Part shown: one piece after another, positions 20,248-44,347 of the stretch
Layout: each line of letters opens with the position of its first letter
Numbering within the stretch: position 1 is the first letter of the stretch
Assembly (NCBI RefSeq): GCF_001484605.1
Contig: NZ_CP013747.1
Location: forward strand, 2,728,001-2,792,000
Reading direction: 5' to 3'
Source of the DNA: Pseudarthrobacter sulfonivorans
Lineage (GTDB): Bacteria > Actinomycetota > Actinomycetes > Actinomycetales > Micrococcaceae
Length of the DNA: 64,000 nucleotides
Position numbers and translations under genes: made by a program
The notes under the pieces: generated by a model
What the model saw: the letters and a program-made list of their open reading frames with translations, nothing else
Database searches by the model: none
What the model was told of the DNA's origin: nothing

Positions 20248-21717
20248 TTACGGGTGTCGTCCCAAGGCCGGCAGCCGGACGAGTTTCAACGCCATATCGA
20301 CGTCGGGGCGGAGGTCGCGGTCCTGGCTGGCAGCCGGCAGCGTGAATCCGGTTTCGAGGGTTCTCCTGAGCAGTGGATTGCTGAACTCGGACGTTTTCCG
20401 TCCCTGCATCCGCAGTGTCCGCGCTGAACACACCAATTCAACAGCCGTCATGGTCGCCAGCGCCTGGACGGTGGAGTCCAGCCGGGATGCCGCCAGGCTG
20501 GCGAAGCTGGCGTCTTCCTCGGCGCCGAGGGACAGGACCACTGTCTGCAGGCTCACGGGCTGGGCGTTGGCGCGGACAAGCCCCGCGGCGGCAGCAGCTA
20601 CGTATTCCAGCATCATGACGCCGGATTGGCCGGAATCGTCGGCTGCCAGGAACCGGTTGAGACCCGTGAACGCGGGGTCGCAGAGCAGGTCTATCCGGCG
20701 GAGGTTGGTGGCGCAGGCCGTACCCAGGGCCAGGTGCAAGGCGTCTATCCGCCTGGCAAGGGTTGTCATCTGGAAAAGGCCGTGATGGGCCACCCCGTTG
20801 GTCCCGTCGGTCTCAGAGCCGAAGACCATCGGGTTCTCGTGGCCGGCAACAACAAGCCGGTTCAGGAGCAATTCAAGCGAGGCAAGCTCCTCCGTGACCG
20901 CCCCGAGGACCTGCGGCAAAGTGCGCAGACAGTACGGATCCTGGATCCGGGCGGCCACACCGGTCCCAGCCACCAGCCCGTGAAGTGTCGCCGCCATTTC
21001 CCCCACGGCAGGCGAATCGGACGCCCGGGCCACCTCAGGGCTGAACGCTTCCGGATTGCCTGACATTGCGGTGAAGGACAGAGCACTCACCAGCGTGAGG
21101 TTCTCCACCAGGACGGCAAGTTTCTGATGGCCCAGCACAGCCTGGGCAACGGTGAGCGCGCTGGAACTGATGAATGGCAGGGCGTCCTCCGTGCCCCAGC
21201 CGTCCAGCGCTTCGGGGATGATGCCGCCGCCCATGGTTGGCCGCTCGCCCAGGAGTGTGAGTGCGGTCCCGGCCAAAGCCGGCAGGTCGGCCGTCCCGAT
21301 CCCGCCGAATTCCCGCACCTCCGGCAAAGCATCACGGTTCAACATCTCCACGAGCGCTTCTGCTATGGCCGGGTTGATGCCGGAGGCACCTGCCGACAGC
21401 TGGGAGAGCCTGATCACAAGCATCGCCCGCACGGTTTCACGGTCGAGGGCCCGCCCGGCATCCACCGCATGGCTGCGCAGGAGATTCAGCCCATGCAGGT
21501 CCATCCCTGTATCCGTTGGATCCAGCGTGACGGAGCGGTTGGCGCCGACCCCGGTGGAACGCCCATAAACGGGCCGGGCTCGGGCGGTTGCCCGCGCCGA
21601 CCGCTGGGATGCCGCCATCCGTTCAACGGCCGACGGCGCCAGCGTCACCCGGGTGCCCCCGGCAGCCACCTTGGTGATATCGGCCAGACGCAGCCATGTG
21701 CCGTCGATTTCAATCAT
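20248..21717 (-). CDS. histidine/aromatic ammonia-lyase homologue lacking the MIO triad
   Basis: A 489-residue member of the HAL/PAL/TAL family. Family features kept are Tyr51 in VYGRSTGVG, NLLRSHA (His83), IQDPYCLRTLPQVLG and the AEED motif near the C-terminus. The loop that should read G-S-x-G-[A/C]-S-G-D-L-A-P-L-A is instead G138-G-I-G-T-A-D-L-P-A-L-A, one residue short with no Ala/Cys-Ser-Gly, so the MIO cofactor cannot form. The INGTQ stretch is replaced by ISSSA. A GASG at 110-113 is at the wrong site. It is the last gene of the IclR/ABC/urocanase operon. A MIO-independent elimination such as loss of trimethylamine from a histidine betaine fits better than ammonia loss from histidine. 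The exact substrate is unproven. Confidence 0.85.
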   Translation of the reverse strand: MIEIDGTWLRLADITKVAAGGTRVTLAPSAVERMAASQRSARATARARPVYGRSTGVGANRSVTLDPTDTGMDLHGLNLLRSHAVDAGRALDRETVRAMLVIRLSQLSAGASGINPAIAEALVEMLNRDALPEVREFGGIGTADLPALAGTALTLLGERPTMGGGIIPEALDGWGTEDALPFISSSALTVAQAVLGHQKLAVLVENLTLVSALSFTAMSGNPEAFSPEVARASDSPAVGEMAATLHGLVAGTGVAARIQDPYCLRTLPQVLGAVTEELASLELLLNRLVVAGHENPMVFGSETDGTNGVAHHGLFQMTTLARRIDALHLALGTACATNLRRIDLLCDPAFTGLNRFLAADDSGQSGVMMLEYVAAAAAGLVRANAQPVSLQTVVLSLGAEEDASFASLAASRLDSTVQALATMTAVELVCSARTLRMQGRKTSEFSNPLLRRTLETGFTLPAASQDRDLRPDVDMALKLVRLPALGRHP

Positions 21718-21802
21718 GGACTGATTCTTTCTCTGGGCCGGTGATCGAGCTTGTCAAGATCCAGGTCTCGCTCCCCGCCAGCCCGACCACCGAAGGGGTC
21801 GG

Positions 21803-23497
21803 TTACCGGGTTTCTTGCATGGGGATGCGGACGCCGCGTTCTTTGGCGACGTCGGTGGCGCGGTTGTAGCCGGCGTCGGCGTGGCGGATGACGCCCATGC
21901 CGGGGTCGTTGGTGAGGAGGCGTTCGAGTTTCTGCGCGGCGAGGTCGGTGCCGTCGGCGACGGAGACCTGGCCGGCGTGGATGGAGCGGCCGATGCCGAC
22001 GCCGCCGCCGTGGTGGATCGAGACCCAGGTGGCGCCGGAGGCGGTGTTGAGCAGGGCGTTGAGCAGCGGCCAGTCCGCAATCGCGTCGGAGCCGTCGGCC
22101 ATGGCCTCGGTCTCCCGGTACGGGGAGGCGACGGAGCCGGAGTCGAGGTGGTCGCGGCCGATCACGATGGGCGCTTTGACCTTGCCGTCCTTGACGAGCT
22201 GGTTGAACAGCAGGCCGGCCTTGGCGCGGTCGCCGTAGCCGAGCCAGCAGATCCGGGCCGGCAGGCCTTCGAACTCCACCCGTTCCTGTGCCGCGTCGAT
22301 CCAGCGGTGCAGGTGCTTGTTCTCGGGGAAGAGTTCCTTGATGGCCTTGTCCGTGACCGCGATGTCCTCCGGGTCTCCGGAGAGCGCGACCCAGCGGAAC
22401 GGGCCCAGACCCTCGCAGAAGAGCGGGCGGATGTAGGCCGGGACGAAGCCGGGGAATTCGAAGGCGCGGGCGTAGCCGCCCGTGCGGGCCTCGTCGCGGA
22501 TGGAGTTGCCATAGTCGAAGACCTCGGCGCCGGCGTCCTGGAACTCCACCATGGCCTGGACGTGCTTCGCCATGGAGGCCTGGGCCTTCTTGGTGAAGCC
22601 CTCCGGGTCGGCGGCGGCCTCGGTGTGCCATTCCTGGACCGTGATGCCTTCGGGCAGGTAGGACAGCGGGTCGTGGGCGGAGGTCTGGTCCGTGACGATA
22701 TCGACGGTCAGCTCCCCCGCACGGTGGCGGCGCAGTATCTCGGGGAAAACCTCGGCGGCGTTCCCGACGTAGCCCACGGACCAGCCGCGGCGATCTTCCT
22801 TGGCCGCCAGGACCTTCGCGATCGCCGTGTCGAGGTCGGTTTCGACCTCGTCGAGGTAGCGTTTGCCAGCGCGGCGGCGCAGGTGGCTTTCGTCGACGTC
22901 GACAATCAGGCAGGCGCCCTCGTTCAGGGTGACCGCGAGCGGCTGGGCACCGCCCATGCCGCCGCACCCGCCCGTGAGGGTCAGGGTCCCTGCGAGGGTG
23001 CCGTCCTGGTCCCCGGTGAGTTTGCGGGCGATCGCGGCGAAGGTCTCAAAGGTGCCCTGCAGGATGCCCTGGGTGCCGATGTAGATCCAGGACCCGGCAG
23101 TCATCTGGCCGTACATCATCAGGCCCTCGGCCTCGAGCCGGCGGAACTCGGGCCAGTTCGCCCAGTCGCCCACGAGGTTGGAGTTCGCCAGCAGCACCCG
23201 CGGCGCCCATTCGTTGGTCCGGAACACACCGACCGGCTTGCCGGACTGGACCAGGAGGGTCTCGTCCTTCTCCATGGTCTCCAGGGTGCGGGTGATCGCA
23301 TCGAACGCCGCCCAACTGCGGACGGCACGGCCGGTCCCGCCGTAAACCACCAGATCATCCGGGCGCTCGGCGACCTCGGGGTCCAGGTTGTTCATCAGCA
23401 TCCGCAGCGGGGCTTCGGTCTGCCAGCTCTTGGCGGTGAGCACGGTGCCGCGGGCAGCTTTGACCGGGCGGGCACCGGTAGTGAAATCGGCTTTCAA
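21803..23497 (-). CDS. hutU: urocanate hydratase (urocanase family)
   Basis: A 564-residue urocanase. The NAD-binding glycine-rich stretch is [14 protein letters not shown], the conserved Cys region [25 protein letters not shown], and the C-terminal [16 protein letters not shown]. It hydrates urocanate to imidazolone propionate. The start is TTG at 23497, with AGGAG eight bases upstream; longer in-frame sequence is not urocanase-like. It lies between the binding-protein gene and the lyase homologue. Because of that partner a urocanate analogue such as thiourocanate cannot be excluded as substrate. Confidence 0.9.
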
Positions 23498-23526
23498 TGT
23501 AATTCTCCTAATATCCTGCGGCCGGC

Positions 23527-24432
23527 CTAGGCCAGGTTCTTGGACTTGAGCCAGTCCTGGGCTATCTGGCCGATGTCCTCGAACTTCGCCACGCGGCCGT
23601 TCATCTCGATGAGGTCTTCCGTGGTGAGCGCGGCCGAGACCTTGTCCAGGACCTCCTTGACGGTGGCCGTGGACTTCTTCTCGTTGATGACCGGGACGAT
23701 GTTCTCGGACAGGAAGAGGTTCTTGTCGTCTTCGAGGGCAACCAGGTTGTTGGCGGCCAGTGCGGGGTCGGTGCTGAAGAGGTCGGCTACCTGTACCTGG
23801 CCGGAAAGCAGGGCGTTCAGCGTCAGGGGACCGCCGGCGTCGAGCGCTGAGAATTCCTTGAACTCCAGGTCGTAGACCGACTTGAGGCCGGCCACACCGT
23901 TCAGGCGGGTCTTCCACTCCGGCGGGCCGCCCAGGACGAGCTCCTTGGCCACGGGCTGGAGGTCGCTGATGGACTTGAGGTTGTGCTTTTCGGCCGTTTC
24001 CTTCTTGACCGCCAGGACGTCCTTGTCCTCGGCTTCGGACGCCGTCAGCATGGTCAGCCCGGAGGGGACCTTGGTGGCCAGTTCCTTGGCGACCTCTTCG
24101 GAGGAGACTGCCTTGGTGGCGGAATCAAGGTACTGCAGGAGGGCTCCGCCGTATTCGGGCATGAGATCGATGGAGCCGTCCTTGAGGGCCGGGATGGTGA
24201 CTTCGCGGCTGCCGATGCTGGGCTTTTCGGTCACCTGGACGCCTTTCGACTTGAGGGCCTCGGCGTAGATCTTGGCGATGAGCTGGCTTTCCGGGAAGTC
24301 CGCGGAGCCCACAATGATGCTGTCGCTGGAGCCTGCCTGGGTGTTGGAGTTGCTCATGGGATCCCCGCCGCAGGCGGTCAGGGCAAGGGCGGCAGCAGCC
24401 GCGAGGGTGATGCCGGTCAGGTACTTTTTCAT
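23527..24432 (-). CDS. betaine-type ABC transporter substrate-binding lipoprotein
   Basis: A 301-residue lipoprotein (signal [12 protein letters not shown]) of the OpuAC/OpuC class. The mature part begins [22 protein letters not shown] and includes [22 protein letters not shown] and [19 protein letters not shown]. This class binds quaternary ammonium compounds such as glycine betaine, choline and carnitine; an ergothioneine-specific branch (EgtU) is also known. It belongs to the importer encoded directly upstream. The ligand cannot be read from the sequence; the linked lyase and urocanase genes suggest a histidine-derived betaine. Confidence 0.88.
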
Positions 24433-24525
24433 GTCAATTCTCTCTGGGGGCTGGCGCAGGGTGTGCAGTGGCCAGGCTGGGGGTTTTCGCCGGACGGCGA
24501 GTGGGATGATGCGTGGGGCGGTGAT

Positions 24526-25242
24526 TCAGGGCGTGACGGGGATTTTCACGGTGTCGGCCGCGGCGGCCGAATTGACGGTGCGCCGGGTCAGTCCTGGTGA
24601 GACGATCCGGCGCGTGATGAAGGCGAGCACCTGGTCAAAGACCAGGGCCATCAGGGCCACCAGCACGGCGCCGGCAACCATCTGGCTGTAGTCGTTCTGG
24701 GCCTTGCCGTCGATCAGCAGGCGGCCGAGGCCACCGAGCGAAATGTAGGCCGCGATGGTCGCCGTCGAGATGATCTGCAGCAATGCGCTGCGGACGCCGG
24801 ACAGCACCAGCGGGAGCGAGCAGGGGAGCTGAACATCCGTGAGGATCTTCATGGTGCGGAAGCCCATGCCCTTGGCAGCGTCGACGGCGGCCGCATCCAC
24901 TGCGCGGATGCCGGCATAGGTGTTGGTCAGGATGGGCGGCACCGCGAGCAGCACCAGGACGATGAGGCTCGGCAGGATGTAGCCCATCTTGGACGGGAAG
25001 GCCGGCGAGATCAGGAGCACGAGCAGGATCAGCAGTCCCACGCTGGGTAGGGCGCGGAGGGCATTGGCCAGGCCGGCGATCATGAAGACGCCCTTGCCGG
25101 TGACACCGATGTAGACGCCGAGCGGAACTGCGATGACGGCCGAGATGGCGAGGGCGATGAGCGAGTAAACGAGGTGCTCGCCGATCAGGTTCGGGATGCC
25201 GTCGGCGCCGGTCCAGTGCGCGGGGTCGAACAAGTAGTTCAT
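24526..25242 (-). CDS. betaine-type ABC transporter permease
   Basis: A 238-residue inner-membrane permease with six hydrophobic segments and the EAA-type loop DAAAVDAAKGMGFRTMKILTDVQLPCSLPLVLSG. It is of the OpuCB/OpuCD type. The start at 25242 forms an ATGA overlap with the upstream permease stop, so the longer in-frame form from 25278 is rejected. It probably pairs with the second permease and the CBS-containing ATPase. Confidence 0.9.
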   Translation of the reverse strand: MNYLFDPAHWTGADGIPNLIGEHLVYSLIALAISAVIAVPLGVYIGVTGKGVFMIAGLANALRALPSVGLLILLVLLISPAFPSKMGYILPSLIVLVLLAVPPILTNTYAGIRAVDAAAVDAAKGMGFRTMKILTDVQLPCSLPLVLSGVRSALLQIISTATIAAYISLGGLGRLLIDGKAQNDYSQMVAGAVLVALMALVFDQVLAFITRRIVSPGLTRRTVNSAAAADTVKIPVTP

Positions 25243-25889
25243 GATGCCACCACCTTGGGGGTCCACGGTGTCAGCCACCGGTTGAGGAGGATGATCAGGC
25301 CGTCAAGGATCATGGCCAGGACCACGCAGAGGATGATGCCGGCGATGATCGGGGTGAAGAACCGCAGCTGGAAGCCTTGGGTGAAGAGGGAACCGAGCTG
25401 GGGGATACCCAGCAGCGCGGCCACTGACACCAGGCTGACGTTGGAGACCGCTGCGACGCGGAGACCGGCGCAGATCACCGGCACGCCGACGGGAAGTTCA
25501 ACTTTGAGGAGGCTCTGGTAGCCGCGGTAGCCCATGGCCTTGGCCGCTTGGGCGGTGTCCTCAGGAACGGAATCCAGGGCATCGGCAACCACTCGGACCA
25601 GCAGGGCCACAGTGTAGATGGTCAGCGCGGCCACGATGTTGAGGGGGTCCAGGATCTTGGTGCCCAGCACCAGCGGCAGCAGCACGAACAATGCCAGCGA
25701 GGGCACGGTGTACAGCAGGCCCGCGATGCCCACCAAGAGGGGGTAGATCCGGCGGCTGCGGTGTGCCCACCAGCCCAGGGGCAGGGCAATCAGCAGGCCG
25801 AGGATCAACGGGGTGACGGCAAGCAGGACGTGCCAGCCGAGCAGGAACACAATATTGTCGAACTGGCGGCCCAGCCATTCAATGTTCAT
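25239..25889 (-). CDS. betaine-type ABC transporter permease
   Basis: A 216-residue permease, paralogous to its neighbour, with EAA loop DSVPEDTAQAAKAMGYRGYQSLLKVELPVGVPVICAG and a characteristic TVPSLALFVLLPLVLG segment. It is translationally coupled to the ATPase gene (25886-25889 overlap) and to the second permease. Together they form the heterodimeric channel of an osmoprotectant-type importer. Confidence 0.9.
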   Translation of the reverse strand: MNIEWLGRQFDNIVFLLGWHVLLAVTPLILGLLIALPLGWWAHRSRRIYPLLVGIAGLLYTVPSLALFVLLPLVLGTKILDPLNIVAALTIYTVALLVRVVADALDSVPEDTAQAAKAMGYRGYQSLLKVELPVGVPVICAGLRVAAVSNVSLVSVAALLGIPQLGSLFTQGFQLRFFTPIIAGIILCVVLAMILDGLIILLNRWLTPWTPKVVAS

Positions 25890-26992
25890 CGCGCCGTCTC
25901 CAGGTGCGGTTCGGCTTCGATGGCCTTGACGATGTCGGACGCAGTGACAGTGCCGATGAGCTCACCGGTGTCATTGACGACGACGCCGCGCCGGCTGGGG
26001 GAGGACAGTGCTGCGTCAAGCAGCTGGCGCATGGTGCCGGCCGATGTCGCTGACGTGCCGCTGAGGTTCAGATGCTCCCGCTTGAGCTCGCCGACGATCA
26101 GCTCGGGCTGTGCCCAGCCAAGCGGCTTCCGTCCGCCGTCGACCACCAGGACCCACGCGCCGGTGGCCCTGGCGTGTGCGTCCGCGGCGGAGTCTCCGAG
26201 CTGAACCACAGCCTCTTCGCTCACCGTCACGGTTCCGGCCACATTGGTGAAGCCGAGGGAACGGTAGCCCCGGTCGCGTCCCACGAAGTCGGCCACGAAT
26301 TCGTCGGCCGGGGAGGTAAGCAGCTCCGACGGTGTGGCCATCTGGGCGAGCTTCCCGCCGACGCGCATCACGGCCACCTGGTCCCCGAGCTTGAGGGCTT
26401 CGTCGATGTCGTGGGTGACCATGATGATGGTCTTGCCGATTTCACGCTGCAGGCGGAGGAATTCGTCCTGGAGCTGCGCACGGACCACGGGGTCCACGGC
26501 GCTGAAGGGTTCGTCCATAAGCATGAACGCAGGGTCCGATGCCAAGGCGCGGGCCACGCCAACACGCTGCTGCTGGCCGCCCGAGAGCTGCCAGGGGTAG
26601 CGCTTGGCGAAGTTCGCCGGAAGGCCAACGCGCTCCATGAGCTCAAGGGCCTTCATGCGGGCTTTCTGCCGGCTCTCGCCCAGGAGCAGCGGCATTGTGG
26701 CCACGTTGTCCACGATGGTGCGGTGCGGGAAAAGCCCGGCGTGCTGGATCACGTAGCCGATCCTGCGGCGGAGCAATGCTGCGTCCATCCCGGAGGTGGG
26801 CTGGTCATCAAGGTAAATGGTTCCGGCGGTGGGCTCGATGAGGCGGTTGATCATCCGGAGCGAGGTGGTCTTCCCGCAGCCTGACGGGCCCACAAGGATG
26901 GTCAGCTTGCCGGTGGGGGCTTCGAGGTCCAGCCCATCCACGGCCACTGTCCCGTCCGGGTAGGTCTTGGTAACACTTTCAAACCTGATCAT
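25886..26992 (-). CDS. betaine-type ABC transporter ATPase with C-terminal CBS region
   Basis: A 368-residue ATPase. Walker A is GPSGCGKTT, the Q-loop is IGYVIQHAGLFPHRT, the signature LSGGQQQRVGVARAL and Walker B FMLMDEPFSAVDP. After residue 240 a CBS-like region ends RGVVVNDTGELIGTVTASDIVKAIE, as in OpuA/ProV-type ATPases, where CBS domains gate transport by ionic strength. The first gene after iclR; its ATG overlaps the iclR stop by four bases. Confidence 0.92.
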   Translation of the reverse strand: MIRFESVTKTYPDGTVAVDGLDLEAPTGKLTILVGPSGCGKTTSLRMINRLIEPTAGTIYLDDQPTSGMDAALLRRRIGYVIQHAGLFPHRTIVDNVATMPLLLGESRQKARMKALELMERVGLPANFAKRYPWQLSGGQQQRVGVARALASDPAFMLMDEPFSAVDPVVRAQLQDEFLRLQREIGKTIIMVTHDIDEALKLGDQVAVMRVGGKLAQMATPSELLTSPADEFVADFVGRDRGYRSLGFTNVAGTVTVSEEAVVQLGDSAADAHARATGAWVLVVDGGRKPLGWAQPELIVGELKREHLNLSGTSATSAGTMRQLLDAALSSPSRRGVVVNDTGELIGTVTASDIVKAIEAEPHLETAR

Positions 26993-27675
26993 TTTGTTTC
27001 CATGCTTTCCAGGGGCTTTTCATGGTTTTCGGAGGGCGTGGTGAGAATTGTTTTGGCCACCTTCGCCAGGTCCTCGCCGATCTTCGTTGCCTTCAGCTCG
27101 TTCAGCCTGTAGCTGGGTGCCACGATGCTCAGGGCGGCCACGGTCCGGCCGCCCATGATGACGGGGGCGGCAACAGCCGTCACGTCATCTTCAACGCCGC
27201 TGCGCATGACTGCGAAGCCGCGTTCGGACTCGCCGCCGGTGAGGACTTTGCCTGCGGCCGATCCCTCCAGCGGGATACTTCTGCCGACCCAGCTGGCATG
27301 CCGGATCGAGTGGGTTCCTTCAACGATTGCTATGTAGATTCCGGTGTCGCCGGTGCCGGGAATGCTGAGGTAGCAGGACTCCCCGGTTTTTGCGACGAGT
27401 CCCTTCATGGCCGGGGTGCAGAGGGATACCAGGGATTCGTGGCCCAGGGCCAGTGCCCCCAGCTGGATGACGCTGGCGCCGGGCCTGAAGTTCCCGCCCG
27501 GATCCCGTGATACGAACCCGCTGGCCTCCAGCGTCCGGAGCAGACGCAGGGCCGTGCTGGCGGACAAATCAACCAGCCGGGCCGCGTCGCTGAGGCTGAT
27601 GGCACCGTCTGTACAGACGGCACTCAGCAGCGCCAGGGCCCGTTCCACCGTCCGGGTTGAAGAATCTGCAGCCAC
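26989..27675 (-). CDS. IclR-family regulator of the betaine/urocanase operon
   Basis: An IclR protein of 228 residues from GTG 27675. A winged helix starts at STRTVERALALLSAV, with ISLSDAARLVDLSASTALRLLRTLEASGFV, followed by the effector domain (GIYIAIVEGTHSIRHASWVGRSIPL). A GTG at 27741 would add 22 residues but would overlap the first TTTCACTCG repeat. It is the first gene of the importer-urocanase-lyase operon, to which it is coupled by an ATGA overlap, and it is divergent from the M20 hydrolase/HutF pair. It therefore probably controls both directions and itself. Confidence 0.85.
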   Translation of the reverse strand: MAADSSTRTVERALALLSAVCTDGAISLSDAARLVDLSASTALRLLRTLEASGFVSRDPGGNFRPGASVIQLGALALGHESLVSLCTPAMKGLVAKTGESCYLSIPGTGDTGIYIAIVEGTHSIRHASWVGRSIPLEGSAAGKVLTGGESERGFAVMRSGVEDDVTAVAAPVIMGGRTVAALSIVAPSYRLNELKATKIGEDLAKVAKTILTTPSENHEKPLESMETK

Positions 27676-27735
27676 TGGTTGACCCGCTTTCGAGTGGTGT
27701 GAATCACTATGTCTTGCCACTAAGTAAAAACCAAC

Positions 27736-27775
27736 TTTCACTCGATGACAATAGATGGCGCCTACTTTTCACTCG
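27736..27775. promoter_or_regulatory. paired TTTCACTCG direct repeats, candidate IclR operator
   Basis: TTTCACTCG occurs at 27736-27744 and 27767-27775, starts 31 bp apart (about three helical turns), in the region between the divergent iclR and M20-hydrolase genes. A related inverted form, TTTCCACTC on the minus strand, lies near 27880. The role as the regulator's site is inferred. Confidence 0.45.
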
Positions 27776-27932
27776 TTCTTCACAAAATCCGGGTTGATCA
27801 CCGCCAGTGCAACAGTCCCGTTTCCGGCGTGTTGCAGGATCGTTAATTGTCACGGGCAGTTGTCCCCAAGCCTTGCCATGGAGTGGAAAGTGGCTTTTAC
27901 TTGGTGGCAGTTCGTACCAATCGGAGGTTCAT

Positions 27933-29132
27933 GTGGAAACCGTCAACCAACTCCTCGATTCCATCAAGGACGTGGGCCGCGATGCGGTCCGCGGAGGCTA
28001 TTCCCGGGCCGTCTACTCGACGGCGGAACTCGACCTGAGGTCCTGGTTCATCGAGCAGGCAACGCAGCGTGGCCTGGACGTCGAGACCGACCGGAACGGC
28101 ATCATCTGGGCGTGGTGGGGCAAGCCCCAGGATGGTGCCCTGGTGACCGGCAGCCACCTCGACTCCGTCCCCGGCGGCGGGGCCTTCGACGGTCCCCTGG
28201 GGGTCGCGTCCGCGCTGGCCGCCGTCGATCTCCTCAAGGCCCGGGGCGTCCAGCCGCGCCGCTCCCTGGCCATTACCGCCTTCCCGGAAGAGGAGGGTTC
28301 CCGCTTTGGAGTTGCCTGCCTCGGATCCCGACTCCTGACCGGAGCCATCGACGTCGACAAAGCGCGGAACCTGCGCGACGGCGACGGTAACACCTTCGCC
28401 GACGTCGCCCGCGCCAATGGCCTGGACCCGCGCCACATCGGGCCGGATCCGCAGGCGCTGGCACGGATCGGTGACTTCGTTGAACTGCATGTGGAGCAGG
28501 GCAAGGGCCTCGGCGCGGGCGGCCCGGCCATCGCCGTCGGCAGTTCCATCCTGGGCCACGGGCGCTGGAAGCTGAGCATCAGCGGCCAGGGCAACCACGC
28601 CGGGACCACCTTGATGGCGGACCGGGCGGATCCGATGGTGGCGGCCGCCCAGATCATCGTGGCCATCCGGCAGGCCGCCGCCCGCCAGCCCGATGCGCGC
28701 GCCACGGTGGGGCGCCTTATCCCGGTGCCGGGCGGCACCAACGTCATCGCCTCCCGGGTGGATATGTGGCTGGATGCGCGCCACCCGGAGGACGCCGTCA
28801 CGGCCCGGCTGATCGAAGCCATCCATGGGAGGGCCCAGCGGGTGTCAGCGGAGGAAGGCTGCACCGTGACCCTGACCGAGGAATCCTACAGCGGGACAGT
28901 GCATTTTGATCCGGACCTGACCCGAAGCATCAGCGGGATGCTGCCGGACGCGCCGCTGCTGGCCACCGGGGCGGGTCATGACGCCGGTGTGCTGGCCGGG
29001 TTTGTGCCGTCCGCCATGCTGTTCGTCCGGAACCCCAGCGGAATTTCGCACTCGCCGGAGGAGCACGTCACGGACGAGGACGCCGGCGCGGGCGCTGCGG
29101 CCCTCGCGGACGTCCTGGCAGGCCTGCTGTGA
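27933..29132 (+). CDS. M20-family amidohydrolase (allantoate amidohydrolase / N-carbamoyl-L-amino-acid hydrolase type)
   Basis: A 399-residue metallohydrolase. Metal-site motifs are TGSHLDSVPGGGAFDGPLGV, FPEEEGSRFG, LHVEQGKGL and SHSPEEH near the C-terminus, with the dimerisation domain around GQGNHAGTTLM. The GTG start at 27933 has GGAGG five bases upstream. It overlaps hutF by four bases, so it probably acts next to it: hydrolysis of N-formyl-L-glutamate (in place of HutG) or N-carbamoyl-L-glutamate to glutamate. The family normally handles ureido or formyl substituents, which suits either. Confidence 0.85.
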   Translation: METVNQLLDSIKDVGRDAVRGGYSRAVYSTAELDLRSWFIEQATQRGLDVETDRNGIIWAWWGKPQDGALVTGSHLDSVPGGGAFDGPLGVASALAAVDLLKARGVQPRRSLAITAFPEEEGSRFGVACLGSRLLTGAIDVDKARNLRDGDGNTFADVARANGLDPRHIGPDPQALARIGDFVELHVEQGKGLGAGGPAIAVGSSILGHGRWKLSISGQGNHAGTTLMADRADPMVAAAQIIVAIRQAAARQPDARATVGRLIPVPGGTNVIASRVDMWLDARHPEDAVTARLIEAIHGRAQRVSAEEGCTVTLTEESYSGTVHFDPDLTRSISGMLPDAPLLATGAGHDAGVLAGFVPSAMLFVRNPSGISHSPEEHVTDEDAGAGAAALADVLAGLL

Positions 29133-30475
29133 AGCGGTACTGGTGCGAGCAGGGAATGGTCGACGGCGGTGCCGGTCCCACAGTTGCCGAACGGGTGGAG
29201 ATCGAGGCCGAGGACGGCCGGATCACCCGCATCTCCCCGTCTGTAGACGCCTCGCCCGGCGCGCATCTCCTGCCCGGCGTTGTTTTCCCCGCCGCGGCCA
29301 ACGCCCACTCGCACGCGTTCCACCGGATCCTGCGCGGCCGCACGCACCACAACCGCGGCGACTTCTGGGTCTGGCGGGAGCACATGTACCGCAGTGCAGC
29401 CGAGCTCACGCCCGAAGCCTACGAGCAGCTTGCTACCGCGGTTTTTGTCGAAATGGTGGTGGCCGGCTTCAGTAGCGTGGCCGAGTTCCATTACGTTCAC
29501 CACCAGCCCCGCGGGAAACCGTACGCGGAACCGCATGCCATGGAGCTTGCCCTGGCGAGGGCTGCTGCTGCCGCCGGCATCCGGCTGACGCTCCTGGACA
29601 CGCTGTACCTGGCCGGCGGCATTGGCATGCCGCTGAGCCAGGAACAGGCACGGTTCGGGGACCGGGACGTGCATGCTTGGCTTGACCGGCTGGCTTCCCT
29701 TCGGACCCACATCGCGGGGACCTTCCCACCGGGCATGGTCAGTGTGGGGGCGGCGCTGCACTCCGTCCGCGGGGTACCGGAGGCGGACCTGGCCGTGGTG
29801 GCCGAACAGCTGCCGCACGACCTGCCGCTTCATATCCACCTGAGCGAGCAGCCCGCCGAGAACGCGGCGTGCCTGGCAGCGCACGGGCTGACGCCCACAG
29901 GACTCCTGGCCCGGCACGGCCTCCTCAGCCGGCGCCTGTCTGCAGTCCACTGCACGCACCTGACGGCTGAAGACATCGCCTTGCTCGGAAACGCCGGGGC
30001 AACAGCGGTCATCTGTCCCACCACCGAGGCGGACCTGGCCGACGGCATCGGGCCCGCCCGGGCGCTGTCCGACGCCGGCGCCTCCATCGCGCTGGGGACT
30101 GACCAGCATGCCGTGATCGACCCCTGGATCGAGATGCGGGCCCTGGAGTACGGGGAGCGCCTTGGCTCTGGGGAACGCGGCCGGTTCTCGCCGGAGGAGC
30201 TGCTCCACGCCGCCACGGAGGGGGCAGTCCGCTCCATGGCCACGCCGGTGGCGCCGGAGGCCTTGCGCGTTGGTGCTGTCTGCGATCTGGTGGCTGTGGC
30301 CGCAGGCTCGGCACGGACCGCGGGATCGAAACCGCAGCAGCTCCCGTTGAGCGCCACCGCCGCCGACGTCACGTCGGTGGTCATCAACGGGGAGTTGGTG
30401 GCGTCCGACGGCGTGCATCACCGCCTGGGAGCGGCGGGGAACCTGCTGACGGCGGCCCTGAAGAACTTCTCCTGA
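29129..30475 (+). CDS. hutF: formimidoylglutamate deiminase
   Basis: A 448-residue amidohydrolase-superfamily enzyme with the HutF pattern: NAHSHAFHRILRGR (metal His-x-His), FWVWREHMY, AEFHYVHH, HIHLSEQPAE, VHCTHL, CPTTEADLADG and LGTDQHAVIDPW. HutF converts N-formimidoyl-L-glutamate to N-formyl-L-glutamate and ammonia. The start is GTG inside the M20 stop (GTGA). Its presence means that a formiminoglutamate intermediate is expected, yet no imidazolonepropionase gene (hutI) lies in this locus. Its 3' end overlaps the convergent EamA gene by about 90 bp. Confidence 0.93.
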   Translation: MKRYWCEQGMVDGGAGPTVAERVEIEAEDGRITRISPSVDASPGAHLLPGVVFPAAANAHSHAFHRILRGRTHHNRGDFWVWREHMYRSAAELTPEAYEQLATAVFVEMVVAGFSSVAEFHYVHHQPRGKPYAEPHAMELALARAAAAAGIRLTLLDTLYLAGGIGMPLSQEQARFGDRDVHAWLDRLASLRTHIAGTFPPGMVSVGAALHSVRGVPEADLAVVAEQLPHDLPLHIHLSEQPAENAACLAAHGLTPTGLLARHGLLSRRLSAVHCTHLTAEDIALLGNAGATAVICPTTEADLADGIGPARALSDAGASIALGTDQHAVIDPWIEMRALEYGERLGSGERGRFSPEELLHAATEGAVRSMATPVAPEALRVGAVCDLVAVAAGSARTAGSKPQQLPLSATAADVTSVVINGELVASDGVHHRLGAAGNLLTAALKNFS

Positions 30476-33570: not shown

Positions 33571-35169
33571 ATGGCCGCGGTTACGGTGGACGATATTCTC
33601 TCGGACCTCCCTCTGGGTTTCGCCAGCCTCATCCTCCGGCCTGCTCCGGCCGGCTCTGTGATCGAACGGTTCCTGATAGTGGATGCGGATGATGAAACGT
33701 CCGACGGCGGCGCGGCCTTTGTCCTGCTGATCGGCGTCCGCGGCCGCTCGGCTTTGCCCGCGCTGCGGCGGCTCCTGAAGAACCCTCCGCCGGTGGTCGC
33801 CGTCAAGGGAAGGCGTGAAGAGCTCGCCGAGGCTGAAGAGCTGCTCCGCGATGCCGGCACGGGCCTGCTCCTGGTGGATCCGGGGGCTGACTGGGACCGG
33901 CTGCTGTCCATCGCCAAGGACCGCATCCAGCCACGCAGCTACCAGAGCGAAGTGCTGACGCTGCTGGAAGAGGACCTGTTTGCCATCGCCCAGACCACCG
34001 CCAGGCTCACATCCAGCCACGTGGTCATCGAAGACGCCGCCAACAAGGTCCTGGCATACTCCACTGTTTCGAACGACATCGACGAGCTGCGCAAGGCCTC
34101 CATCCTGGCCCGGCGCGGTCCGCGTAAATACGAGCTGCTGCTGAAGGACCTGGGCGCCTACCGTGAACTGCACAGGACCCGGCTGCCGGTGCGGGTACCG
34201 GCCCGGCCCCAGGACGGGCTGCGGGAACGGGTGGCCGTCACTCTGTTCGCCGGGGACCGGATCATGGGCTACATCTGGCTGCAGGAAACGGGGGCGGGCT
34301 TCGGCACGGACGTTGATCACGTGCTCACCGGATCTGCTGCACGGGCCTCCGCCGAGCTGATCCGTTTCCGCAACCAGCAGTCCGTACACATGCGCGAAGA
34401 CCGCATTGCCCGGATTTTGTCAGGTCCGGCGGAAGCCGCGGCCAGTGCACACAGCGAGAAGATCTCCGCTGAGCGCCCGGCCGCATTGATCCTGATAGGA
34501 ATGTCCGATGCCGATGCTCAGGCCGACGACGCAGCACTGAAGCACGGCGAACTCGCCAATCTGGCGTCCATCCACGCCGCCGCCTACAAGGCGTCCGCCG
34601 TCGTGGGCCAGTTCAAGGGCGACACCGCCGTGATTGTCCCTGGCCTGCAGTCAACCGTCGCGGAGCCCGGGCTGCGGAGCCTGGCCGAATCCATCGTCCG
34701 TGATGCCGGCAAGCACCTCGGCATCAGCCCGTTCGCAGCCGTCGGTCCGGTAGTCCCGGACCTGCTGTCCATCCACTCAACCACCCGTATCACCGAGGCC
34801 CTGTTGAGTTGCGTAGGCACGTCTCCGGATACGGCCGTTGCCACCGTGGACGACTTCGAGGGAGAGGTCCTCTTCCGCGAGGCAGTCCAGAATTTCACGT
34901 CCTCCACATTCCGCCACCGCAGTCTTTCCGCCCTGCTGCGGCAGGACGCCGAACTTGCGGAAACCCTGCACGCGTACTTCGAAGCCTCGCTCGATGTCGC
35001 CGAGTGCGCCAGCAGGATGGGGCTGCACAAGAACACCGTCTACTACCGGATCAGCAAGGCATCCCGGGCGACTGGGCTGAACTTCGGCAACCCGCGGGAC
35101 TCCCTGGTGGCCCTGCTCCACATCCAGGAATGGGCCGGCACACCTAAAGAACAACTGGGCAGGAAATGA
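33571..35169 (+). CDS. PucR-family transcriptional regulator
   Basis: A 532-residue regulator with N-terminal PucR sensory part (VTVDDILSDLPLGFASLIL), a middle GGDEF-like region and a C-terminal helix-turn-helix: LAETLHAYFEASLDVAECASRMGLHKNTVYYRISKASRATGL, which is diagnostic. PucR proteins commonly activate purine, amino-acid or amine catabolic genes. Its stop overlaps the glutaminase start (ATGA), so it leads a transcription unit with glsA and probably the permease and TPP-enzyme genes, which it likely controls. Confidence 0.9.
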   Translation: MAAVTVDDILSDLPLGFASLILRPAPAGSVIERFLIVDADDETSDGGAAFVLLIGVRGRSALPALRRLLKNPPPVVAVKGRREELAEAEELLRDAGTGLLLVDPGADWDRLLSIAKDRIQPRSYQSEVLTLLEEDLFAIAQTTARLTSSHVVIEDAANKVLAYSTVSNDIDELRKASILARRGPRKYELLLKDLGAYRELHRTRLPVRVPARPQDGLRERVAVTLFAGDRIMGYIWLQETGAGFGTDVDHVLTGSAARASAELIRFRNQQSVHMREDRIARILSGPAEAAASAHSEKISAERPAALILIGMSDADAQADDAALKHGELANLASIHAAAYKASAVVGQFKGDTAVIVPGLQSTVAEPGLRSLAESIVRDAGKHLGISPFAAVGPVVPDLLSIHSTTRITEALLSCVGTSPDTAVATVDDFEGEVLFREAVQNFTSSTFRHRSLSALLRQDAELAETLHAYFEASLDVAECASRMGLHKNTVYYRISKASRATGLNFGNPRDSLVALLHIQEWAGTPKEQLGRK

Positions 35170-36098
35170 CCACAGCACTCAAAGCACCGCCGTTGGACCC
35201 AATACTGGACGACATCGTTCGCAGCCACAGGCCACAGCAGGAAACCGGTTCTGTCCCGGCCAACATCCCCCTCCTGGCAGCGGTACCTTTCGACAGGTTC
35301 GGGATCGCCGTCGCCACCACTTCCGGTGAGGTGTTCAGTTCCGGCGATGCCGACGTCCCGTTTTCCATCCAGAGCATCTCCAAGGTGTTCACGCTCGCAA
35401 TGGCGCTTCGAGGCGACAGCTCAGGGATACTGTGGTCCCGCGTGCTGCGCGAACCGTCCGGCACCTCGTTTAACTCCCTGGTTCAGCTGGAACTGGAGCA
35501 CGGCATCCCGCGGAACCCTTTCATCAACGCCGGCGCCCTGGTGGTCACCGATCACCTGATGGAAGAAACGTCCGACGCCGCCGCCCAGGTGTTGCGGTTC
35601 CTCACCGCCCAGGCGGCCAGCACTGGGCCATTCATCGATGAGGCCGCCGCAGCCAGCGAGCTCGCCAGCAGCAGCCGCAATCGGGCCCTGGCGCACTTCC
35701 TGAAGGGCTTCGGCAACCTGAAGCAGCCCGCGGAATCAGTGGTGCAAAACTACGTCCGCCAATGCTCCATCATGATGACCTGCGTGGAACTCGCCAAAGC
35801 GGGACTCTTCCTCGCCCGGGACGGCCACGGATCGCTCGGAACCGTGGTGTCCCCCAGCGACGCGAAACGCATCGGCTCCATCATGCTGACGTGCGGGATG
35901 TATGACGCCGCTGGCGAGTTCGCCTACCGCGTGGGCCTTCCCGGAAAAAGCGGTGTGGGCGGCGGGATCCTGGTCATTGTTCCAGGTGTTTGTGCCATTT
36001 GCGTCTGGAGCCCGCGGCTGGACGCCAAAGGAAACTCCCTGGCCGGCACCGCCGCTCTCGCCGACCTTTCCGACCGCACCGGCTGGTCCGTTTTCTAA
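35166..36098 (+). CDS. glsA: glutaminase
   Basis: A 310-residue serine-dependent glutaminase of the beta-lactamase fold. The catalytic SxxK motif is S70-I-S-K73 (FSIQSISKVFTL); RNPFINAGALVV and the VGLPGKSGVGGGILVIVPG stretch near the C-terminus are family marks. It hydrolyses L-glutamine to glutamate and ammonia. It overlaps the pucR stop and is followed after 72 bp by an amino-acid permease, indicating an amino-acid uptake and deamidation unit. Confidence 0.93.
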   Translation: MTTALKAPPLDPILDDIVRSHRPQQETGSVPANIPLLAAVPFDRFGIAVATTSGEVFSSGDADVPFSIQSISKVFTLAMALRGDSSGILWSRVLREPSGTSFNSLVQLELEHGIPRNPFINAGALVVTDHLMEETSDAAAQVLRFLTAQAASTGPFIDEAAAASELASSSRNRALAHFLKGFGNLKQPAESVVQNYVRQCSIMMTCVELAKAGLFLARDGHGSLGTVVSPSDAKRIGSIMLTCGMYDAAGEFAYRVGLPGKSGVGGGILVIVPGVCAICVWSPRLDAKGNSLAGTAALADLSDRTGWSVF

Positions 36099-36170
36099 AC
36101 CCCCAGGTTGCACACCCCCACAACTTCTTCCCAACCCAGCAGGATCTTCTCCGTATCGAAAGGATCAACC

Positions 36171-37691
36171 ATGCCCATCAGCCCCAATGACGAGGATGTA
36201 CTGAAACAGGCCGACGGCGGCCACGCGCACGCCTCTGAGTCTGCCCTGCACGCGGAGGACAAGGGCTATCACAAGAGCCTCAAGCCGCGGCAGATCCAGA
36301 TGATCGCGATCGGCGGGGCGATCGGCACCGGCCTGTTCCTGGGCGCCGGTGGCCGGCTTAACGCCGCGGGCCCGTCGCTGGTCATCGCGTACGCCGTGTG
36401 CGGTTTCTTTGCGTTCCTGATCCTGCGGGCGCTGGGTGAGCTGGTGCTGCACCGTCCGTCGTCGGGCTCGTTTGTTTCCTACGCCCGTGAATTCTTCGGC
36501 GAGAAGGCCGCGTTTGTCTCCGGCTGGTTCTACTGGCTCAACTGGGCCACCACCACCATCGTGGACATCACCGCCGCAGCGCTTTACATGAACTTCTTCG
36601 GCAACTACATCCCGTGGATGGCTGCTGTCCCGCAGTGGGCCTGGGCCCTGATCGCCCTCGTGGTGGTCCTCGCCCTGAACCTCGTCTCTGTGAAGGTCTT
36701 CGGCGAAATGGAGTTCTGGTTTGCCCTGATCAAGGTCGCGGCCCTGGTGGTCTTCCTCGTGGTGGGCACCTACTTCGTCATCTTCGGCACGCCCGTGGAC
36801 GGCCAACCGGTGGGCCTCAGCCTCCTCTCGGACAACGGCGGGGTCTTCCCCAACGGCCTGCTCCCCATGATCATCCTGATGCAGGGCGTCCTGTTCGCCT
36901 ACGCCTCCATCGAACTCGTGGGCACCGCCGCCGGCGAGACCGAGAACCCCGAAAAGATCATGCCCAAGGCCATCAACTCCGTGGTCTTCCGCATCGCGGT
37001 CTTCTACGTCGGCTCCGTCATCCTGCTCGCCCTGCTGCTGCCCTACACGTCCTACGAAAAGGGCGTCAGCCCGTTCGTGACGTTCTTCGGTTCCATCGGC
37101 ATCCAGGGCGTAGACGTCATCATGAACCTCGTGGTCCTCACCGCCGCGCTCTCCTCGCTGAACGCCGGCCTGTATTCGACCGGACGCATACTCCGCTCCA
37201 TGTCCGTGAACGGCTCCGCCCCGAAGTTCGCGGGCCGGATGAACAAGGCCGGCGTCCCCTACGGCGGCATCGCCATCACCGCCGGAGTGTCCCTGCTCGG
37301 CGTCCCGCTGAACTACCTGGTGCCCGCACAGGCCTTCGAAATCGTGCTGAACGTCGCGTCCGTGGGCATCATCATGACCTGGGCAACCATTGTGCTCTGC
37401 CAAATCCAGCTCCAACGCTGGGCGAACAAAGGCTGGCTCAAACGCCCGTCATTCCGGATGTTCGGCGCCCCGTACACCGGCTACCTCTCGCTGCTCTTCC
37501 TCGCGAGCGTCCTCGTGATGGTGTTCATCGACTCACCCCTCACCATGCTGGTCACGGCCATCGCCTCCGTGCTGATGGTGTTCGGCTGGTACGCCTGCCG
37601 GGCCCGCATCCGTGAAATCGCCGAAACCCGCGAAGGCTTCACCGGCACCGCCCCCGTCATCGCCAACCCGCCCGCGGAGACCTTCAGATAA
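36171..37691 (+). CDS. amino-acid permease of the APC family (GabP/AnsP type)
   Basis: A 506-residue, 12-helix permease. An N-terminal hydrophilic 35 residues precede the first motif, [24 protein letters not shown], the family hallmark. Other marks are [15 protein letters not shown] and [23 protein letters not shown]. The substrate is probably an amino acid such as glutamine, asparagine or GABA; glsA beside it favours glutamine. The start at 36171 has AAAGGAT six bases before it; an in-frame ATG at 36108 lacks one. Confidence 0.9.
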
Positions 37692-37741
37692 ACCCCGCAC
37701 CATCCACTACAAAAACCAGTCCAAACAGCCAAAGAAAGCCC

Positions 37742-42709: not shown

Positions 42710-44347
42710 TCAGCCGGCTGCCACTGTCTCGTGAGCCGAGGTGAACGCGCCCCCGTAGTTTTCAGTCGAGGAGACCCCGTCCAGGATTTCGTGCAACTTT
42801 CCGCGGCCACCCGGGTTGAGCAGGAACTTGCGCGGCTTACCCTCGACGTTGGCGCCGTAGTAGTGGCTGTGTTCGACGGAGAAGATCGAAAGGGGAGCGA
42901 GGGTCTCGATCATCGACATCCAGATTGCCTCCTGCGCGGCCGTCGGCTCGAAGCTGTGGTAGCCCTGTTCGCGCGCATAAATGATCGTGTCGAGGATCCA
43001 ATCAACCTGGTCCTGCGAGTACCGCGGGTAGTTGCCGCCGCCCGCTCCGTGCGGACCCCCGGGGAAAAAGAAGTTCGGCAGGCGATTTGCGCTGAACCCA
43101 CCGAAGTCGGACGGGCCGTCCGCCCAGTCGATGCTCAGATCGAGTCCTTCGCGGCCCTTGACGCCCATCCGGGTGAGGGCGCCCGTTCCGAAGTCGAATC
43201 CGGTGGCGTACACGATGATGTCGTAGTCCCGGTGTCCCTCCGTGGTCTCGATCCCGGTCGCGTCTACGCGCACGATCGGCGTTTCCTTGAGTGCGATGAG
43301 GCCGGCGTTCGGTTTGTTGAACGACTCGAAGTAATTTGTCACGAAGGGCGGACGCTTCGCGCCGAACAGGTGGTCCTTCGGAATGAGACGGTCGGCAGTG
43401 ACAGGGTCCTTGACGATGCTGCGGATCTTTTTGGCGAGGAACTCGCAGAACTCGAGGTTGACGTCCCGGTTCGTGGTCATGTCGTAGTAATTCGAGGTCA
43501 GCTTCGCGAAGCCGGGGCTCGTCCAGATCTTCTCGTAGAACTCCTGGCGGGCTTCTGCCGAGTCCTCGGTGGAGAACTTCCCGGCAGGTTCGTGGAGAAA
43601 CCCCGACGGCGACGTGCTGAGTACCGTCACGATGTCCTCGAAGTTATCGTGGAGCCATTCGTACCGTTCGCTGGTGATTGGTGCGTTGTTCAGGGGTGTG
43701 GTCCAGGTCGGGGTGCGCTGGTAGAGGTCGACTGATTCGACGACGTCGACAATTGCCGGCAGCAGCTGGGCGCCGCTGGGGCCGTTGCCAATGATCGCGA
43801 CGCGCTTGCCGGTGAAATCGATCGGCGTGTGCGGCCACGCACCGGTGTGGTGCCCTTCCCCCTGGAAGTCGTCGAGGCCCTCGATCTCGGGGAGGTGCGG
43901 CACCGAGAGTCCGCCGGTCGCTGAGATGACCCAGCGTGCGCGGGTGGTCTCGCCCGCTTCGGTTGTGACCACCCAGATGGCGTCTGTTTCGTCGTAGACC
44001 GCGGACACGACCCGCTGTCCCGTGCTGATGTTCTTACGCAGGTCGAAGCGATCGACGACAAAGTTGAGGTAGTCCTCGATTTCGGGCTGCGTCGCGAATT
44101 CCTCCCGCCAGCGCCACTCGCGGAACAGCTCCTTGGAGAAGATGTATCCGTAGGTATAGCTCTCGGAGTCGAAGCGTGCCTCTGGGTAGCGGTTCCAGTA
44201 CCAGACACCTCCGACGCCGTCGCCGGCTTCCAGCGTGCGTGCGGTGAATCCCGCATCGATTGCCCGGTAAAGGGCGTAGATTCCGACGACTCCAGCGCCG
44301 ATCACCAGTACGTCTACATCGACTTCGTTGTCTGACTTCACTGTCAT
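42710..44347 (-). CDS. Baeyer-Villiger monooxygenase (class B flavoprotein)
   Basis: A 545-residue FAD/NADPH enzyme. The first Rossmann motif is GAGVVG (17-22), the BVMO fingerprint FxGxxxHxxxWP is FQGEGHHTGAWP (161-172) and the second Rossmann motif is GNGPSG (187-192). Also present are GGVWYWNRYPEARFDSESYTY and the late ATG-type motif DIIVYATGFDFGTGAL. It would turn a ketone, probably cyclic, into an ester or lactone. GGGAG lies seven bases upstream of the start. It heads a three-gene operon and is divergent from an SDR, which could make its ketone substrate. Confidence 0.93.
   Translation of the reverse strand: MTVKSDNEVDVDVLVIGAGVVGIYALYRAIDAGFTARTLEAGDGVGGVWYWNRYPEARFDSESYTYGYIFSKELFREWRWREEFATQPEIEDYLNFVVDRFDLRKNISTGQRVVSAVYDETDAIWVVTTEAGETTRARWVISATGGLSVPHLPEIEGLDDFQGEGHHTGAWPHTPIDFTGKRVAIIGNGPSGAQLLPAIVDVVESVDLYQRTPTWTTPLNNAPITSERYEWLHDNFEDIVTVLSTSPSGFLHEPAGKFSTEDSAEARQEFYEKIWTSPGFAKLTSNYYDMTTNRDVNLEFCEFLAKKIRSIVKDPVTADRLIPKDHLFGAKRPPFVTNYFESFNKPNAGLIALKETPIVRVDATGIETTEGHRDYDIIVYATGFDFGTGALTRMGVKGREGLDLSIDWADGPSDFGGFSANRLPNFFFPGGPHGAGGGNYPRYSQDQVDWILDTIIYAREQGYHSFEPTAAQEAIWMSMIETLAPLSIFSVEHSHYYGANVEGKPRKFLLNPGGRGKLHEILDGVSSTENYGGAFTSAHETVAAG

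What the first reader, a model, noticed from the sequence alone, without database searches (positions are those of the whole stretch)
20248..30475. Candidate catabolic system for histidine betaines (hercynine or ergothioneine type)
An operon encodes IclR, a complete betaine-class ABC importer, urocanase and a MIO-less lyase; divergent genes encode an M20 formyl/carbamoyl hydrolase and HutF. Quaternary-amine uptake plus elimination would yield urocanate (or thiourocanate) and trimethylamine, then glutamate. All genes are coupled by 4-bp overlaps or short gaps, so they act as one unit. A classic histidine pathway would need a histidine permease, MIO-type HutH and HutI, none of which is here.
Basis: partly seen in the sequence, partly recalled or inferred. 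Interest (0 to 1): 0.85.

Follow-up and report, generated by a model that had tools for sequence, protein, structure and literature searches.

The report
Probable hercynine (histidine-betaine) degradation operon
A soil bacterium carries a gene set that most likely imports hercynine, the trimethylated form of histidine, strips off trimethylamine with a relative of histidine ammonia-lyase that lacks the usual cofactor, and feeds the resulting urocanate into a second copy of part of the histidine-breakdown route.

Summary
The lyase belongs to a distinct clade (100/100 support) without the Ala/Cys-Ser-Gly triad that forms the MIO cofactor. The genome holds an ordinary histidine route elsewhere (MIO-type HutH with HutU, HutI, formimidoylglutamase). 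At least 14 of 295 genomes of the bacterial family carry such a lyase, and these 14 all also hold a MIO-type HutH. The operon's urocanase is 98.9% identical to the ordinary HutU and falls below the thiourocanate-hydratase cut-off, so the lyase product is most likely plain urocanate; this favours hercynine over ergothioneine. One predicted operator pair covers both gene arms and was not found at the ordinary hut genes. A sister strain without the importer has a broken lyase. A differently lesioned MIO-less lyase sits with the same importer type and hut genes on a Klebsiella plasmid. Against: the binding protein lacks most of the aromatic cage of known quaternary-amine binders; 9 of 13 other lyase loci have no importer beside them; two genomes have the importer without the lyase; no trimethylamine gene was seen; Sinorhizobium and Aureimonas hut loci also carry MIO-less 'HutH'. 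The substrate is inferred, not shown. New variant of a known kind: ergothionase-like chemistry feeding Hut.

The parts
20248..21717 (-). MIO-less PF00221 lyase, proposed hercynine trimethylamine-lyase
   Evidence: PF00221 304 bits; hutH 241 bits, below its cut-off of 539; triad absent; AlphaFold2 model nearest to ergothionase 6s7j by a small margin
21803..23497 (-). Urocanate hydratase, second copy in the genome, TTG start
   Evidence: hutU 885.5 bits, cut-off 375; 98.87% identical over 1680 nt to the copy at 1.83 Mb
23527..24432 (-). OpuAC-type substrate-binding protein
   Evidence: PF04069 176 bits; model fits ProX, EgtU and OpuBC about equally
24526..25242 (-). ABC permease 2
   Evidence: PF00528; ATG overlaps the stop of permease 1
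25239..25889 (-). ABC permease 1
   Evidence: PF00528
25886..26992 (-). ABC ATPase, proV type with a C-terminal CBS stretch
   Evidence: proV 297 bits, below its cut-off of 327; ABC_tran and CBS
26989..27741 (-). IclR-family regulator, start uncertain (the longest ORF begins inside the motif)
   Evidence: HTH_IclR and IclR_C
27715..27743 (-). Predicted operator site upstream of the IclR/importer arm
   Evidence: 24 of 29 bases shared with the other site; pair present in 13 further loci
27881..27909 (+). Predicted operator site upstream of the M20/HutF arm
27933..29132 (+). M20 amidohydrolase, proposed N-formylglutamate hydrolase
   Evidence: allantoate amidohydrolase model 612 bits, cut-off 372; ErtE 268 bits, below cut-off 520; no PF05013 deformylase found in the genome
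29129..30475 (+). HutF, formimidoylglutamate deiminase
   Evidence: NF006681 537 bits over cut-off 362; TIGR02022 409, just under cut-off 413

Best explanation
An IclR-controlled unit for using hercynine (N-alpha-trimethyl-L-histidine). The ABC importer takes the betaine up. The MIO-less lyase removes trimethylamine by beta-elimination; trimethylamine is a good leaving group, so no MIO electrophile is needed (the chemistry of ergothionase). The product is urocanate. The operon's own urocanase makes imidazolone propionate, the single chromosomal HutI opens the ring, HutF makes N-formylglutamate, and the M20 enzyme releases glutamate. Shown by sequence: gene content, loss of the MIO triad, urocanase type, shared motif before both arms, ordinary histidine route elsewhere in the genome. 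Inferred: hercynine as substrate, trimethylamine as leaving group, deformylation by M20, IclR as the protein that binds the motif, induction by substrate or product.
For: (1) The lyase lost the triad and has Ser for Asn195, but keeps the equivalents of Tyr53, His83, Gln277, Tyr280, Arg283, Phe329 and Glu414 of Pseudomonas HutH (residue roles recalled). (2) The nearest solved fold is ergothionase, by a small margin. (3) HutH+HutU (1.83 Mb), HutI (0.82 Mb) and formimidoylglutamase (3.02 Mb) lie outside the window. (4) 14 of 14 genomes in which I identified a window-type lyase also hold a CSG/MIO HutH. (5) The operon hutU is 98.87% identical to the ordinary copy but 92.1% to its own orthologue in L033, which suggests gene conversion and the same reaction. 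(6) Same importer type, a MIO-less lyase of another lesion, and hutG, hutI, hutU, hutD, hutC, hutF on a Klebsiella plasmid. (7) Importer and lyase adjacent in other orders in L072, L073, L078, L079. (8) L034 lacks the importer and has a broken lyase but keeps HutU, HutF and M20. (9) Shared motif pair. (10) No EgtD match in the genome, so hercynine would come from outside (which had no positive control over the cut-off).
Against: The binding protein has Asp138 where EgtU-type cages have a tyrosine, Glu243 for another, and Ala44 and Phe46 for EgtU Lys242 and Gly244; Asp138 is also in 11 of 11 retrieved members of a second binding-protein group in the family. 9 of 13 other lyase loci have no importer beside them. 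Two genomes (G188, G283) have the importer (54-61% identical) but no lyase among the matches I saw. No trimethylamine-using gene was recognised in the stretches annotated; the rest of the genome was not searched for one. Sinorhizobium and Aureimonas loci hold MIO-less proteins annotated as histidine ammonia-lyase next to hut genes, so lack of MIO may not exclude histidine. HutI is outside the operon. By sequence score, HutH structures are closer than ergothionase.
Confidence: 0.6

Rival explanations
1. The substrate is another N-substituted histidine (mono- or dimethylated, or another good leaving group), eliminated to the same urocanate.
For: Same downstream enzymes; the pocket of the binding protein carries Asp138 and Glu243 instead of an aromatic cage, which would suit a protonated amine.
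Against: A poorer leaving group without MIO is chemically harder (established knowledge of ergothionase against HutH). The importer fold is that of quaternary-amine importers.
Confidence: 0.15
2. An auxiliary histidine or urocanate operon: the importer brings in histidine or urocanate, and the lyase works on free histidine without MIO or has another role.
For: Sinorhizobium and Aureimonas hut loci with betaine-type importers carry MIO-less proteins annotated as histidine ammonia-lyase. Sinorhizobium HutXWV is a histidine transporter (recalled). L034 keeps urocanase, HutF and M20 with another ABC system.
Against: 14 of 14 genomes with the window-type lyase already hold MIO-HutH; low dN/dS and a conserved active-site set argue for a working lyase of its own.
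Confidence: 0.15
3. Ergothioneine, S-methyl-ergothioneine or ergothioneine sulfonate is the substrate.
For: Ergothionase is the known MIO-less trimethylamine lyase (PMC13405746, passages seen) and the nearest fold.
Against: The urocanase is below the cut-offs of thiourocanate hydratase and S-methyl thiourocanate hydratase, while a Burkholderia locus passes for thiourocanate hydratase and ErtD; 0 of 396 genomes across the phylum pass the thiourocanate hydratase cut-off; EgtU-specific residues are not kept; no desulphurising gene is among the nine genes.
Confidence: 0.1

Closest known systems
Ergothionase (Treponema denticola 6s7j; Burkholderia sp. HME13) and the Ert ergothioneine pathway
   Same: HAL-fold lyase without MIO, presumed trimethylamine elimination, urocanase-family next step, M20 hydrolase
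   Different: About 23-28% identity and outside the window clade in the tree; urocanase is HutU and not thiourocanate hydratase; no hydantoin step; HutF route to glutamate; importer in the operon
Histidine utilisation (Hut) pathway
   Same: Urocanase, HutF, a HutH-fold lyase; urocanate as the proposed lyase product
   Different: Lyase lacks the MIO triad and is below the hutH cut-off; second copy with its own motif; betaine-class importer; HutI not in the cluster
EgtU and OpuB/OpuC/ProX quaternary-amine importers
   Same: Fold; OpuAC-type binding protein; Glu172/Arg176 as equivalents of EgtU Glu375/Arg379
   Different: Separate binding protein and two permease genes; aromatic cage largely replaced; Lys242 and Gly244 not kept
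Sinorhizobium hutC-hutF-ABC-'hutH' locus (HutXWV type, name recalled)
   Same: Betaine-type importer, HutF and a MIO-less HAL relative together
   Different: One permease gene, another binding-protein type, hutC regulator, different lesion (GSVGY---L)

Membership tests
MIO-dependent histidine ammonia-lyase (HutH) | Ala/Cys-Ser-Gly triad forming MIO | tested here: not met
   GGIG-TADL; absent in 116 of 116 aligned window-type sequences; the genome's own HutH has CSG
MIO-dependent histidine ammonia-lyase (HutH) | Score above the curated hutH cut-off | tested here: not met
   241 bits against 539
Ergothionase | HAL fold without the MIO triad | tested here: met
Ergothionase | Groups with known ergothionases in a tree | tested here: inconclusive
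   The window clade excludes the one ergothionase row (100/100), but that row is on a long branch
Ergothionase | Thiourocanate hydratase as pathway partner | tested here: not met
   positive control
Ergothionase | Releases trimethylamine from ergothioneine | not testable with these tools
   needs an enzyme assay
Urocanate hydratase (HutU) | Above the hutU cut-off and better than the thiourocanate variants | tested here: met
   885.5 against 375; the variants give 694 and 634, both below their cut-offs
Ergothioneine importer EgtU | Phe293, Gly244, Lys242 and the Tyr341/419/443 cage (residues from PMC9732360) | tested here: not met
   Tyr94, Phe46, Ala44, Asp138, Phe219, Glu243; mapped through printed alignments to Lmo1422 and iAChSnFR and the motifs, not through a printed EgtU alignment
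Quaternary-amine (OpuC/ProX-type) importer | OpuAC fold with its own ATPase and permeases | tested here: met
Quaternary-amine (OpuC/ProX-type) importer | Ligand is a quaternary amine | not testable with these tools
   cage not conserved, ligand unknown
HutF formimidoylglutamate deiminase | Above a curated HutF cut-off | tested here: met
   NF006681 536.7 against 362; TIGR02022 408.9, just under 413.05

The most novel reading that the evidence does not exclude
Window-type lyases, and separately the GSVGY---L lyases on Klebsiella, Rhizobium, Agrobacterium and Sodalis plasmids, are undescribed trimethylamine-lyases for hercynine or other aromatic betaines. The MIO triad was discarded with at least two different lesions, each allied with the same importer type, and the lyases turn a widespread fungal and actinobacterial metabolite into urocanate and trimethylamine.
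Probability: 0.45. Interest if true: 0.75.

Novelty: new variant of a known kind. Interest (0 to 1): 0.62.

Why it matters
If true, it names a degradation route for hercynine, the precursor of ergothioneine, shows a second kind of MIO-less trimethylamine lyase, and gives a function to a family that databases label histidine ammonia-lyase or aromatic amino acid lyase. It also gives a testable rule: a HAL relative without the MIO triad beside a betaine-class importer is a betaine eliminase. It would add a possible bacterial source of trimethylamine.

Tried and rejected
Ergothioneine pathway: rejected as first choice by urocanase type, with a positive control. 'Lyase replaces a missing HutH': rejected, since a MIO-type HutH is in the same genome and in the 14 genomes tested. 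'Paralogue in decay': rejected for the window by dN/dS and conserved residues, but the L034 copy is broken. Importer specificity from cage residues: inconclusive, because Asp138 is shared by a second group of binding proteins. An EgtU alignment could not be printed: EgtU ranked sixth and seventh and only five alignments are shown. The first tree held a mis-extracted row (L114) and an unusual row (L078b); both were dropped and the tree rebuilt. The tree is unrooted, so the number of independent MIO losses is not claimed. The operator motif in the ordinary hut loci: best score 18, no better than background. Literature searches. 'Hercynine' with 'urocanate' gave one paper, on teixobactin metabolomics. 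None of the 14 papers holds 'hercynine degradation' or 'hercynine catabolism'. 'Hercynine lyase' is in none of the 25 listed of 337 papers (the other 312 were not seen). Subscription papers on ergothionase and the Ert pathway (Maurer 2019, Muramatsu 2013, Yan 2022) were not seen; I know them from recall and from a reference list. Odds of the main reading were left unchanged; two rivals were set to 0.15 and 0.1 in this first complete list.
Full report
What is there. The window lies at 2,728,001-2,792,000 of a 5.06-Mb genome whose nearest named lyase relatives are Arthrobacter, Pseudarthrobacter and Paenarthrobacter. On the minus strand run IclR, an ABC ATPase, two permeases, an OpuAC binding protein, urocanase and a PF00221 lyase; on the plus strand, divergently, an M20 amidohydrolase and HutF. 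Four junctions overlap by 4 bp and three are spaced by 93, 29 and 85 bp. Of 23 loci fetched with the lyase from genome contigs, 9 have hits to all nine genes in the same order (L018, L019, L020, L026, L027, L029, L030, L033, L035); 9 are cut by a contig end, 2 lack hits to one or two genes, 1 (L021) is rearranged, 1 (L034) is a broken variant and 1 (L036) is not a member.

It is not the cell's histidase. The genome holds a MIO-type HutH with HutU and an IclR-like gene at 1.83 Mb, one HutI over cut-off at 0.82 Mb and a formimidoylglutamase over cut-off at 3.02 Mb. Of 295 genomes of the family searched with the lyase, 237 have some match at E 1e-20; I identified window-type lyases in 14 (a minimum, since lower rows were not all listed). 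14 of 14 also hold a PF00221 protein of 575 bits or more with the CSG triad. In 25 genomes of the genus, 25 match the lyase query at some level, 3 have the window-type lyase and 6 have HutF; the 3 lyase carriers are among the 6 (Fisher p = 0.009, not corrected for relatedness). In the other 3 HutF carriers M20 and HutF were found without lyase or importer beside them (L159, L161, L162).

The product is most likely urocanate. The operon urocanase scores 885 bits as HutU and 634 as thiourocanate hydratase (cut-off 930). As a positive control, a Burkholderia locus whose lyase is nearest to ergothionase (270 bits) gives 1050 bits for thiourocanate hydratase and 694 for the hydantoinase ErtD, both over cut-off. 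None of 396 genomes sampled across the phylum passes the thiourocanate hydratase cut-off. The two hutU copies of this genome are 98.87% identical over 1680 nt, and the long similarity is confined to the gene. Against the orthologous operon L033 the same gene is 92.1% identical; there permease 1, ATPase, M20 and binding protein are 96.0-98.6%, the lyase 94.9% and HutF 92.1%. The two copies within the genome are thus closer to each other than the operon copy is to its orthologue, which points to gene conversion and argues that both enzymes do the same job.

Coupling of importer and lyase. Importer and lyase are neighbours, in other orders, in 4 of 13 loci fetched (L072, L073, L078, L079). In the other 9 they are not: L074 stops at a contig end and its genome has the importer on another contig; L067 and L076 have the closest binding protein elsewhere in the genome; L068 has HutI, HutF, M20, HutU, an IclR gene and a MIO-type HutH beside the lyase instead; L077 has an MFS transporter and urocanase; L069-L071 and L075 showed none. 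Two genomes (G188, G283) have the importer (54-61% identical) without a lyase among the matches I saw. In L034, a close relative, the importer is replaced by an SsuA-like ABC system and the lyase is broken, while urocanase, HutF and M20 are present. On a Klebsiella plasmid an importer of the same kind (binding protein 56% identical) stands with a lyase whose triad is lost differently (GSVGY---L) and with hutG, hutI, hutU, hutD, hutC and hutF. Klebsiella pneumoniae has a hut cluster with hutH (PMC12188710, passages read).

Regulation. A 29-bp motif occurs once before each arm (27715-27743 minus, 27881-27909 plus; 24 of 29 identical). Of 21 other loci scanned, 13 hold the same pair with scores of 23-29 (L018, L019, L020, L026, L027, L029, L030, L032, L033, L035, L149, L160, L163); one site is left in L031, L034 and L161 and a weak one in L162 and L150; L159, L068 and L072 have none of 20 or more. 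No site of 20 or more occurs in 143,108 background bases, which include the stretches of the ordinary hutH/hutU and hutI; these and the hutG stretch reach 18 at most. The motif was derived from the window and part of it is palindromic; that IclR binds it is an inference.

Doubts about the importer. The binding-protein model fits ProX, EgtU and OpuBC about equally. EgtU holds its ligand with Phe293, Tyr341, Tyr419, Tyr443 and Asn339, with Lys242, Arg379 and Glu375 (PMC9732360, passages read). Mapped through alignments to Lmo1422 and iAChSnFR, the window has Tyr94, Asp138, Phe219, Glu243, Asp136, Ala44, Arg176 and Glu172, so the aromatic cage is largely replaced, and the EgtU-specific Gly244 is Phe46. 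The same Asp138 is in 11 of 11 retrieved members (L138-L148) of a second binding-protein group in the family, so it is no marker of this system. A quaternary ligand therefore rests on the lyase chemistry and the transporter family, not on the pocket.

Mechanism proposed. Hercynine enters; the lyase eliminates trimethylamine (a leaving group that needs no MIO) to give urocanate; HutU, the shared HutI, HutF and M20 lead to glutamate. No EgtD match was found in the genome (no positive control over cut-off among its control genomes), so hercynine would be an outside nutrient. No N-formylglutamate deformylase of the PF05013 type was found, which is why M20, an 'allantoate amidohydrolase' by model (612 bits, cut-off 372) and not ErtE (268 bits, cut-off 520), is given that step. 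What becomes of trimethylamine is unknown; I did not search the genome for it.

Other readings. A secondary or tertiary N-methyl histidine fits the acidic pocket better but is chemically harder. An auxiliary histidine or urocanate operon is not excluded: Sinorhizobium and Aureimonas loci carry proteins annotated as histidine ammonia-lyase beside hut genes and betaine-type importers, MIO-less in the two rows checked (L096, L100) and, by 93.5% identity to L096, probably in Sinorhizobium meliloti L179 too; their substrate is not established here.

Prior knowledge. In the held open-access library, 'hercynine' with 'urocanate' occurs in one unrelated paper, and none of the 14 papers holds 'hercynine degradation' or 'hercynine catabolism'; the other searches are listed under Tried and rejected. 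A 2026 paper (PMC13405746, passages read) finds ergothionase in few genera and says divergent homologues may be missed. Subscription papers were not available, so absence from print is not claimed beyond these searches.

Verdict.

Noticed in passing
L034:3535-10822 (Pseudarthrobacter sp. MDT3-9): Same locus with the betaine-class importer replaced by an SsuA-like ABC system and the lyase broken; urocanase, HutF, M20 and the M20-side motif kept.
   Followed up: partly
L092:4455-12382, L098:5501-13493, L099:5540-13326: Agrobacterium, Rhizobium and Sodalis plasmids carry the same importer type and a GSVGY---L MIO-less lyase followed by a CoA transferase, a 3-hydroxyacyl-CoA dehydrogenase and an enoyl-CoA hydratase, as if an arylacrylate were degraded by beta-oxidation (another aromatic betaine, or urocanate by a CoA route).
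   Followed up: partly
L179:1844-8491, L096:8001-9490, L100:7989-16143: Sinorhizobium and Aureimonas hut loci carry proteins annotated as histidine ammonia-lyase that lack the MIO triad (checked in L096 and L100), together with betaine-type ABC importers.
   Followed up: partly
window 21803-23497 and L003:11907-13610: The two hutU copies look gene-converted; contigs of eight relatives end close to or inside hutU (L014-L017, L022, L023, L025, L028), perhaps because the repeat breaks assemblies.
   Followed up: partly
L021 (Arthrobacter sp. 9AX), L067 and L149 (genome handle G236): Operon split: importer, IclR, M20 and HutF with the start of a hutU lie at one place, and the lyase lies about 1 Mb away in the same genome.
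   Followed up: partly
L073:5091-10603: A lyase relative near a malic-enzyme-like gene, a CitE/RipC-like lyase and a methenyltetrahydrofolate-cyclohydrolase-like gene, which may hint at one-carbon use of the released amine.
   Followed up: no
L078:13351-16002 and L079:3764-6403: A second, unusual PF00221 protein (GAAGE in place of the triad) beside an ornithine-cyclodeaminase-family gene, close to the window-type lyase and importer.
   Followed up: no
L159:9358-12983: M20 and HutF of a genus member without the lyase, next to an ORF that looks HutD-like by eye (not searched).
   Followed up: no
window 33571-39496: PucR-type regulator, glutaminase, amino-acid permease and a TPP enzyme in a row.
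   Followed up: no
window 42710-59835: FMO-like flavin monooxygenase, two pyridine-nucleotide reductases, cytochrome P450 and aldehyde dehydrogenase: probably an oxidative catabolic cluster.
   Followed up: no
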